DNA of 64,000 nucleotides. Origin: Sphingobacteriales bacterium. GTDB lineage: Bacteria; Bacteroidota; Bacteroidia; Sphingobacteriales; Sphingobacteriaceae. This document shows, in pieces, positions 22,462-23,952 of this stretch (within the stretch, counting starts at the first letter, position 1; each line of letters opens with the position of its first letter). The notes beneath the pieces were generated by a model that did not search any database, had not been told where the DNA came from, and worked only from the letters and a program-made list of their open reading frames with translations. The position numbers and the translations under genes were made by a program. The stretch lies in contig JANXOD010000024.1 in NCBI GenBank assembly GCA_025353765.1, forward strand, positions 152,530-216,529, written 5' to 3'.

Positions 22462-22790
22462 CTTAACAAACACCAACCTATTTTCTATTTACGGGTATCC
22501 GTAATCAATAAACACGTACCTGTTTTCTATATATAAGTACTGGTAATCAATAAACACCAACCTATTTTCTATATACAGGTACTAGTAATCAATAAACACC
22601 AACCTGTTTTCTATATCCGAGTACCTGTAATCAATAAACACATACCTGTTTTCTATATATGGGTACTAGTAATCAATAAACACATACCTGTTTTCTATAT
22701 ATGGGTACTAATAATCAACAAACACTAACCTGTTTTCTATATTCAGGTACTGCTAATCAATAAACACATACCTGTTTTCTATAAACGCCA
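22462..22790 (+). repeat. Tandem array of about eight 42-bp units
   Basis: Units start at 22501, 22543, 22585, 22627, 22669, 22711 and 22753, after a diverged first unit. Each reads TAATCAATAAACAC-nn-ACCTGTTTTCTATAT-nnn-GGTACT with a few variable positions. Units 22627 and 22669 are identical. ACCTG and the variable nGGT can pair, so each unit may form a weak hairpin. It is not a CRISPR: there is no separate spacer, the period is constant and no cas gene is present. Confidence 0.92.
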
Positions 22791-22885: not shown

Positions 22886-23239
22886 ATGGCTCGTTTAAAA
22901 ACATCTTCTAAAACCTATGAAAAAGCATTCCGCCGGATTGCATCTGTAAAAAACATTGATGCTAATTTTGATCTGGGTAATGGCTTAACGGCAGCATCTT
23001 ACCAGGCAAGTATTGACCTGGTAAAAGCTTCTATGGACGAGTATAATACTCAATTATCAAAGGTAGACGGGCTGTTAAATACTCTCAAAGACAGCGAAAA
23101 AGCGCTTAATGATTGGAATGATCGTATTCTTATGGGGGTGGCTTCTAAATTTGGCAAAGAGAGCAGCCAGTATGAGGAGGCCGGCGGTACGCGTAAAAGC
23201 GACCGTAAAAAAGTGGTAAAAAAAATTAAAGCTGCTTAA
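22886..23239 (+). CDS. Small basic protein with GGTRKSDRK tail, function unknown
   Basis: A 117-residue protein. It has a basic start (MARLKTSSKTYEKAFRRIASV), a long helical middle with heptad-like spacing (IDLVKASMDEYNTQLSKVDGLLNTLKDSEKALNDWND) and a conserved-looking tail KFGKESSQYEEAGGTRKSDRKK followed by a Lys-rich end. I do not recognise a named family; I recall similar 'YExxGGTRxSxRK' tails in unclassified small proteins of other bacteria, unverified. It is preceded by the 42-bp array plus 95 bp of AT-rich DNA, and followed by a REP hairpin that may serve as its terminator. Confidence 0.75.
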   Translation: MARLKTSSKTYEKAFRRIASVKNIDANFDLGNGLTAASYQASIDLVKASMDEYNTQLSKVDGLLNTLKDSEKALNDWNDRILMGVASKFGKESSQYEEAGGTRKSDRKKVVKKIKAA

Positions 23240-23250
23240 GTAAGGGATTA

Positions 23251-23316
23251 ACCATTCCAAAAGTTTTAATTAACCTTTCCAAAAGTTTTAAACTTTTGGA
23301 AAGGTTTTATTTTTTA
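23251..23316. repeat. REP-type hairpin upstream of the transposase gene
   Basis: A perfect palindrome with 17-bp arms, AACCTTTCCAAAAGTTT / AAACTTTTGGAAAGGTT (23272-23306), then TTTATTTTTT. A half copy (CATTCCAAAAGTTTTAAT) sits just before it. The hairpin may also terminate the 117-aa gene. Confidence 0.9.
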
Positions 23317-23331
23317 AGAACTTCTTTTTAA

Positions 23332-23904
23332 ATGGAAGCAGAAACATACTACCATATTTATACTCATGCAAACGGTTCTGAAAACCTGTTCAGAAATACA
23401 AAAAATTACCTATTTTTTCTAAAACGTTACATAACCTTTATTCCTTCTATTGCAAATACCTATGCCTATTGCCTGATGCCAAATCATATTCATTTTTTGA
23501 TCCGAGTTAAAAGCGAAAAAGAAATTGAAAAATATTTTGGAAAGTTTGAAACTTTCCAAAAGTTAAGCTTCCGTATCAGTAAACAATTTGCCAATCTGTT
23601 TAGCAGCTATACGCAGGCTTATAATAAAGTTTATAGCCGTAAGGGCAGTCTTTTTATTCCTAATTTTAAAAAGAAAGAAATAACATCAGTAGCACACCTT
23701 ATAAAGATTATTCATTACATCCATGCCAATCCTGTACATCATGGTTTTACAAAGGCTATAAGCCAATGGCAATGGAGTTCGCATCATGCCTTTCTTAGTC
23801 AGAAATCGAGTTTATTAAAGCGGGATGAAGTTTATGAATGGTTTGGGGGAAAAGATGGATATGAAGATTTTCATCAAAAAGAAATTATTCATTTAAAAAA
23901 ATAA
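23332..23904 (+). CDS. REP-associated tyrosine transposase (RAYT, Y1/IS200-like)
   Basis: A single-domain HUH transposase of 190 residues. The HUH motif is in YAYCLMPNHIHFLIRV. Other family marks are YYHIYTHANGSENLF at the start, YSRKGSLFIPNFKKKEI, and HYIHANPVHHGF ... WQWSSHHAFL (usually WSSYxAF). RAYTs cut and join single-stranded DNA and are thought to spread REP hairpins; most are single-copy 'domesticated' genes. Hairpins with arms of CTTTCCAAAAGTT lie on both sides of the gene, and another copy of this half-site lies inside the gene (23535-23564, encoding FGKFETFQK), as expected for a REPtron. Confidence 0.92.
   Translation: MEAETYYHIYTHANGSENLFRNTKNYLFFLKRYITFIPSIANTYAYCLMPNHIHFLIRVKSEKEIEKYFGKFETFQKLSFRISKQFANLFSSYTQAYNKVYSRKGSLFIPNFKKKEITSVAHLIKIIHYIHANPVHHGFTKAISQWQWSSHHAFLSQKSSLLKRDEVYEWFGGKDGYEDFHQKEIIHLKK
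23535..23564. repeat. REP palindrome inside the RAYT coding sequence
   Basis: TTTTGGAAAGTTT / AAACTTTCCAAAA, with one central base, contains CTTTCCAAAAGTT (23552-23564), the same half-site as the flanking hairpins. Confidence 0.85.
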
Positions 23905-23919
23905 GCTTTTAAAAAAATT

Positions 23920-23952
23920 AGCTTTCCAAAAGTTTTGAACTTTTGGAAAGCT
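23920..23952. repeat. REP-type hairpin downstream of RAYT
   Basis: AGCTTTCCAAAAGTT / AACTTTTGGAAAGCT, a perfect 15-bp stem with a TTG loop. Its arms match the upstream hairpin except at the base. Confidence 0.92.

What the first reader, a model, noticed from the sequence alone, without database searches (positions are those of the whole stretch)
23251..23952. REPtron: RAYT transposase flanked by REP hairpins, with a third REP site inside its own coding sequence
The half-site CTTTCCAAAAGTT appears in the hairpin before the gene, in the hairpin after it, and in the coding sequence (23552-23564), where it forms a palindrome in swapped order and encodes FGKFETFQK. RAYT genes with flanking REPs are known; an internal palindrome within the coding region is unusual and could allow the protein to act on its own gene or mRNA.
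Basis: partly seen in the sequence, partly recalled or inferred. Interest (0 to 1): 0.62.

Follow-up and report, generated by a model that had tools for sequence, protein, structure and literature searches.

The report
Transposase gene carrying its own hairpin
A domesticated-transposase gene is bordered by DNA hairpins and also carries the same kind of hairpin, in frame, inside its own coding sequence; such internal copies were first reported in 2018, but here they are shown to track each gene's bordering hairpins and to be conserved as DNA or RNA rather than as protein.

Summary
A 190-aa RAYT-like (TnpAREP) gene at 23332-23904 has REP-like hairpins on both sides (23272-23306, 23920-23952) and a perfect palindrome inside it (23535-23561).

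It is not unusual. Quentin et al. 2018 (PMC6006769) reported in-frame REPs inside tnpAREP genes. I find one at the same place (loop before helix alphaC) in 58 of 175 non-redundant Bacteroidota homologues.

What I add:
- Internal hairpins match the flanking hairpins of their own locus (0.73 vs 0.40 permuted, 0/20,000).
- The unit is 33 nt (11 codons), so it can enter in frame; all three frames occur.
- Each 15-nt arm is itself a 6-3-6 inverted repeat. No GT[AG]G foot.
- The palindrome exceeds the codon-neutral expectation (window p=0.0015). In the window's clade 51/51 synonymous choices are kept in it, against 222/505 elsewhere.
- In this genome the hairpins occur only at this locus, so 'REP' in the dispersed sense fails here.

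Best reading: a copy of the gene's own REP unit, placed in a tolerant loop and kept partly by selection on the nucleic acid, perhaps as a self-recognition site. Binding and autoregulation are untested. New variant of a known kind.

The parts
23247..23291 (+). 22-bp tandem duplication; its first copy holds a one-mismatch half-site (23253-23265)
   Evidence: TRF period 22, 2.0 copies, 95%
23272..23306 (.). upstream flanking REP-like hairpin, 17-bp arms, 1-nt centre; followed by a T-rich run on the + strand (terminator-like)
23332..23904 (+). RAYT-like (TnpAREP/Y1 HUH) gene, 190 aa; NHIH at residues 51-54, catalytic Tyr Y129 in YIHANP
   Evidence: PF01797 E 7e-5; NF047646 58 bits; AF2 pLDDT 94.7; Foldseek 4ER8 E 1.3e-8; single copy in the genome
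23535..23561 (.). internal in-frame palindrome TTTTGGAAAGTTT-G-AAACTTTCCAAAA, coding for YFGKFETFQ; core of a 33-nt REP unit 23532-23564; at the tip between helix 62-69 and helix alphaC 75-101
23552..23564 (+). internal half-site CTTTCCAAAAGTT
23920..23952 (.). downstream flanking REP-like hairpin, 33 nt, 15-bp arms, 3-nt loop

Best explanation
The internal palindrome is an in-frame copy of the RAYT's own 33-nt hairpin unit, sitting in the variable beta3-alphaC loop of its gene. Shown: internal units have the same length and nested architecture as the flanking units of the family and match the flanks of their own locus; they occur in all three frames and are conserved at synonymous sites, so the nucleic acid rather than the peptide is the conserved thing. 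Inferred: RAYT, acting close to its own gene, inserts or rewrites hairpin units at its locus, and copies survive inside the gene because 33 nt keeps the frame and the loop tolerates 11 extra residues. Inferred, less sure: in some lineages, the window's among them, the hairpin is then kept by selection as a site that RAYT itself recognises in its own gene or transcript (self-limitation or autoregulation), or as an RNA structure that tunes its expression.
For: Own-locus internal-flank similarity 0.73 against 0.40+-0.03 permuted, 0/20,000; more like own flanks than the nearest relative's flanks in 20 loci against 6. Modal perfect-hairpin length is 33 nt upstream, downstream and inside. On 42 internal units 97% of cells pair and 13 of 15 pairs show double changes; this set was chosen by peptide motif, but most rows with poor pairing were left out by hand, so it leans upward. 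In the undropped peptide-defined set 19/21 and 24/30 loci keep at least 11/12 pairs against nulls of 6.6 and 5.6. Window clade: same codon at 51/51 sites in the palindrome against 222/505 elsewhere; L008-L011: 42/46 against 421/775. In G075, G084 and G065 the internal hairpin is the only copy in the genome at up to 3 mismatches, so no donor is left to repair it. Sister genes L082 and L074/L078/L083 (63-67% identical) hold the unit at one place in two frames. In G720, 19 of 20 sampled copies are intergenic and the single intragenic one is in the RAYT.
Against: Presence is patchy: 31 changes on the tree for 49 carriers (shuffled 42.6). Some internal units are decayed (L050, L052, L163, L191) or belong to another hairpin family than the flanks (L039, L146), as expected of neutral turnover. 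Codon-pair counts are not phylogenetically independent. G614 and G858 each hold a flanking copy that could repair the internal one. For the window itself the internal unit is not the best match to its own flanks (0.48, rank 7) because the central triplet is inverted. No binding, cleavage or expression data exist.
Confidence: 0.6

Rival explanations
1. Neutral passenger: RAYT-driven hairpin units land near or in their own gene and only in-frame landings in the flexible loop survive. Internal and flanking copies match because both are recent, and there is no function.
For: Loop position; all three frames; patchy distribution; decayed and tandem relics such as L191 and L115; mismatching loci L039 and L146; Quentin et al. 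call the region peripheral with little expected impact.
Against: Perfect palindromes kept at synonymous sites across proteins of about 50-77% identity, including three genomes with no other copy at up to 3 mismatches; about a third of the genes carry one.
Confidence: 0.33
2. The encoded peptide (FGKFETFQK, LQGFxNLGG and the like) is the selected feature, for example as the recognition element for the same hairpin, and the DNA palindrome is a by-product.
For: 43 of 51 internal units use one frame although the three frames are open about equally often; the residues lie just before helix alphaC, whose counterpart contacts REP in E. coli TnpAREP (PMC8266576).
Against: The same hairpin family is read in other frames with unrelated peptides at the same place (TFPKFxTLEK vs NFSKVxNFxKV); wobble bases are kept beyond peptide need; most homologues lack the insert.
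Confidence: 0.1
3. The flanking hairpins are ordinary intrinsic terminators and the internal one is a chance palindrome.
For: The upstream hairpin is followed by a T-run on the + strand and the downstream one on the - strand.
Against: Shared 13-mers found nowhere else as hairpins in the genome; family-wide internal-flank matching; codon-neutral test; conserved 33-nt nested architecture.
Confidence: 0.02

Closest known systems
TnpAREP subclass 2.4 of Quentin et al. 2018 (Bertels group 4)
   Same: [quoted passage not shown] found in Bacteroidetes among other phyla.
   Different: 2.4 REPs carry GT[AG]G feet. Here there is none (8/141 flank and 2/59 internal hairpins against 13/140 at control positions), and the WQ motif is replaced by F-I.
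TnpAREP subclass 2.6 of Quentin et al. 2018 (Bertels group 5)
   Same: Bacteroidetes; hairpins without GT[AG]G; conserved C-terminal Ser-Ser; YIHxNP.
   Different: Internal units were called unique to 2.4, not 2.6; 2.6 is listed with WQ and YIH[QN]NP, the window has F-I and YIHANP; 2.6 hairpins are called weak, these are perfect 15-17-bp stems.
E. coli TnpAREP/REP (REPtron, PDB 4ER8)
   Same: Fold, HUH and catalytic Tyr, flanking palindromes.
   Different: E. coli REPs have GTAG and a bulge and are dispersed; these are perfect nested palindromes confined to the locus in this genome.
REPs inside other genes (Di Nocera et al. 2013, PMC3733652)
   Same: Palindromic repeats read as in-frame codons.
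   Different: Those lie in unrelated genes; here the carrier is the cognate RAYT gene itself.

Membership tests
RAYT/TnpAREP protein family | HUH plus single catalytic Tyr, TnpAREP fold | tested here: met
   NHIH 51-54; Y129, H131 and N133 invariant in 53 rows; 4ER8 best fold match; PF01797
RAYT/TnpAREP protein family | NCBIfam NF047646 above its curated cut-off | tested here: not met
   58 bits against 80, E 9e-16; four homologues also below
REPtron | gene flanked by copies of one palindromic REP | tested here: met
REPtron | REP dispersed in the host genome | tested here: not met
   only the locus copies in G000; met in relatives G506 (31), G720 (26), G466 (16), G576 (14)
REPtron | RAYT binds and cleaves its REP as ssDNA | not testable with these tools
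   needs purified protein
[quoted passage not shown]
TnpAREP subclass 2.4 | GT[AG]G foot on the REPs | tested here: not met
TnpAREP subclass 2.4 | WQ motif (E. coli W94-Q95) | tested here: not met
   F108-I109 in the aligned place
TnpAREP subclass 2.6 | Bacteroidetes, REPs without GT[AG]G, C-terminal SS | tested here: met
   named hits are nearly all Bacteroidota; S149 and S150 nearly invariant
TnpAREP subclass 2.6 | YIH[QN]NP, WQ, the subclass HMM | tested here: inconclusive
   YIHANP, no WQ; the published HMMs are not held here
IS200/IS605 insertion sequence | multi-copy mobile element | tested here: not met
   one copy in G000

The most novel reading that the evidence does not exclude
In this Bacteroidota lineage the hairpins are not a dispersed repeat family but locus-bound control sites. 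RAYT recognises the same 33-nt nested palindrome upstream of, inside and downstream of its own gene, and the internal, coding copy is kept by selection on DNA or RNA as a self-recognition (autoregulatory) element that changes together with the flanking sites.
Probability: 0.3. Interest if true: 0.66.

Novelty: new variant of a known kind. Interest (0 to 1): 0.5.

Why it matters
The purpose of RAYTs and of their REPs is an open question. A cognate hairpin inside the coding sequence, matched to the flanks and conserved at synonymous sites even where no other copy remains in the genome, gives a clean test of whether RAYTs act on their own gene or message: break the hairpin with silent changes and keep the protein. 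The footless 33-nt nested palindrome also gives a defined substrate for a branch of the family whose hairpins have been called atypical.

Tried and rejected
- Dispersed REPs in the own genome: none. The sixth exact word, at C6:470139, has no mate on the other strand.
- GT[AG]G foot or any conserved base outside the 33-mer: none.
- Peptide-driven conservation: contradicted by units in other frames.
- 'Internal hairpins replace lost flanks': flanks are rarer where an internal unit is present (24/52 vs 77/112, p=0.009), but this does not hold in phylogenetically independent pairs, so not claimed.
- Empty-site pairs: the nearest 'without' relatives mostly carry decayed units, so no clean insertion junction was found.
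- Viral contigs: no relatives, no exact palindrome.
- An early synonymous comparison grouped loci by their DNA word and was biased; repeated with peptide-defined groups.
- Bertels et al. 2017 is not in the library and was not read.

Full report
WHAT IS THERE. A 190-aa gene (23332-23904, +) encodes a Y1/HUH protein of the TnpAREP/RAYT type: PF01797 just above its cut-off; NCBIfam REP_Tyr_transpos at E 9e-16 but below its cut-off; AlphaFold model at mean pLDDT 94.7 whose best PDB match is 4ER8, E. coli TnpAREP bound to a REP hairpin. It is the only copy in the 2.83-Mb genome. A 17-bp-arm hairpin lies 26-60 nt before its start, a 15-bp-arm hairpin lies 15 nt after its stop, and a perfect 27-nt palindrome lies inside it at 23535-23561. 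The shared half-site occurs six times in the genome, five of them here. Hairpins of the flank form or of the internal form, at up to 3 mismatches, occur nowhere else in this genome.

IT IS A FAMILY TRAIT. I collected about 200 homologues from Bacteroidota genomes. Of 175 non-redundant loci, 58 carry a hairpin with arms of at least 10 bp in the stretch after the HuH motif, between beta3 and helix alphaC. In the window's protein the palindrome codes for residues at the tip between helix 62-69 and helix 75-101. The internal sequences differ widely between loci (FGKFETFQK, FPKFxTLEK, LQGFxNLGG, LTGFxNLSG and others), and each tends to match the hairpins flanking its own gene: mean similarity 0.73 against 0.40 (sd 0.03) when flanks are permuted among loci, 0 of 20,000; 20 loci are closer to their own flanks than to those of the nearest relative, 6 are not. 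Exceptions exist (L039, L146, L085).

THE UNIT. Upstream, downstream and internal hairpins share one architecture with a modal length of exactly 33 nt and no information outside it. 33 nt is 11 codons, so an inserted unit keeps the reading frame. Each 15-nt arm is itself an inverted repeat with 6-nt arms and a 3-nt centre, so the unit reads [6-3-6]-3-[6-3-6] (arm self-pairing 0.79 against 0.28 for shuffled arms). On 42 internal units the long hairpin pairs in 97% of cells with compensatory changes at 13 of 15 pairs, and the two short hairpins pair in 91%. For these 42 I started from the peptide-defined set and left out most rows with poor pairing, so the percentages lean upward; the undropped set is. 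The 'swapped order' in the window is explained by this layout: internal and flank forms share most of the hexamers and differ by inversion of the central triplet. GT[AG]G feet are absent: 8/141 flank and 2/59 internal hairpins against 13/140 at control positions.

NUCLEIC ACID, NOT PEPTIDE. Choosing loci by peptide motif, blind to DNA, 19 of 21 and 24 of 30 keep at least 11 of 12 pairs; resampling synonymous codons gives means of 6.6 and 5.6; for the window 12 against 7.9, p=0.0015. In the window's clade (L007, L037, L065, L091) identical residues use identical codons at 51 of 51 sites inside the palindrome and at 222 of 505 outside it; in L008-L011 at 42/46 against 421/775 (pairs are not independent). 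G075, G084 and G065 hold no other copy at up to 3 mismatches, so repair from another copy in the genome cannot explain conservation there. The hairpin is read in one main frame (43 of 51) but also in the other two, with unrelated peptides at the same place. Counter-evidence: decayed internal units exist and presence is patchy on the tree.

DISPERSAL. Some relatives have 14-31 dispersed copies (G506, G466, G576, G720). In G720, 19 of 20 sampled copies are intergenic and the one intragenic copy is in the RAYT gene. In G506 the sample of 22 contained two hairpins in one 633-aa reading frame; three more frames called there look spurious to me. Several genomes hold a single exact copy, and it is the one inside the RAYT gene.

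HOW IT MOST LIKELY WORKS. A copy of the gene's own hairpin unit sits in a tolerant loop. Its agreement with the flanks implies repeated insertion or rewriting of units at the locus, presumably by RAYT acting close to its gene (inference). In the window's clade the hairpin is then conserved at the nucleic-acid level. The most economical function is recognition by RAYT of its own gene or transcript, or an RNA structure that limits expression; none of this is shown. The neutral-passenger reading remains a serious rival (0.33).

WHAT IS KNOWN. Quentin et al. 2018 (PMC6006769; [quoted passage not shown] The window's family combines the internal unit of 2.4 with the footless hairpins of 2.6 and lacks the WQ motif of both, so I do not file it in either. 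Corneloup et al. 2021 (PMC8266576) show TnpAREP/REP co-evolution in groups 2 and 3. I found no report of internal-flank matching, of the 33-nt nested layout or of synonymous conservation in the open-access papers searched; subscription papers and all supplements were out of reach, so this is not a claim of priority.

VERDICT. Observation confirmed; interpretation partly supported; a new variant of a known kind, of moderate interest because it makes RAYT self-recognition directly testable.

Noticed in passing
window 22468-22787: Tandem array of a 42-nt unit (7.6 copies, 84% matches) upstream of the 117-aa ORF that precedes the RAYT gene.
   Followed up: no
window 22886-23239: 117-aa ORF directly upstream of the RAYT gene, no Pfam match; the upstream hairpin with its T-run could be its terminator.
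   Followed up: no
L037 (G614:C1:765599-765835): A second, partial RAYT reading frame (57% identical over residues 1-79) directly before the intact RAYT gene; a degenerate internal-type hairpin lies at its end.
   Followed up: no
L115, L112, L191, L141: Loops that look like stacks of several old REP units (for example TLEKLELEKLELEKFKQLEKFKKLETLE in L115; a decayed LTGFESL next to a fresh NLQGFQNLEG in L191), suggesting repeated insertion at one place.
   Followed up: partly
L277 (G506:C5), positions 800 and 1073: Two REP hairpins inside one 633-aa reading frame that is not a RAYT.
   Followed up: no
L113 loop: Internal unit that looks like a chimera of two hairpin families (CTCCAAGGG half and CCTGACAGG half), which could be a replacement intermediate.
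   Followed up: no
L170, around the start codon: REP hairpin overlapping the start codon of a RAYT gene (AAAGATGGCATCACT...), a possible translational control site.
   Followed up: no
L056, L202, L201: Both orientations of the central triplet (for example TCA and TGA) occur among hairpins of one locus, as between the internal and flank forms in the window.
   Followed up: partly
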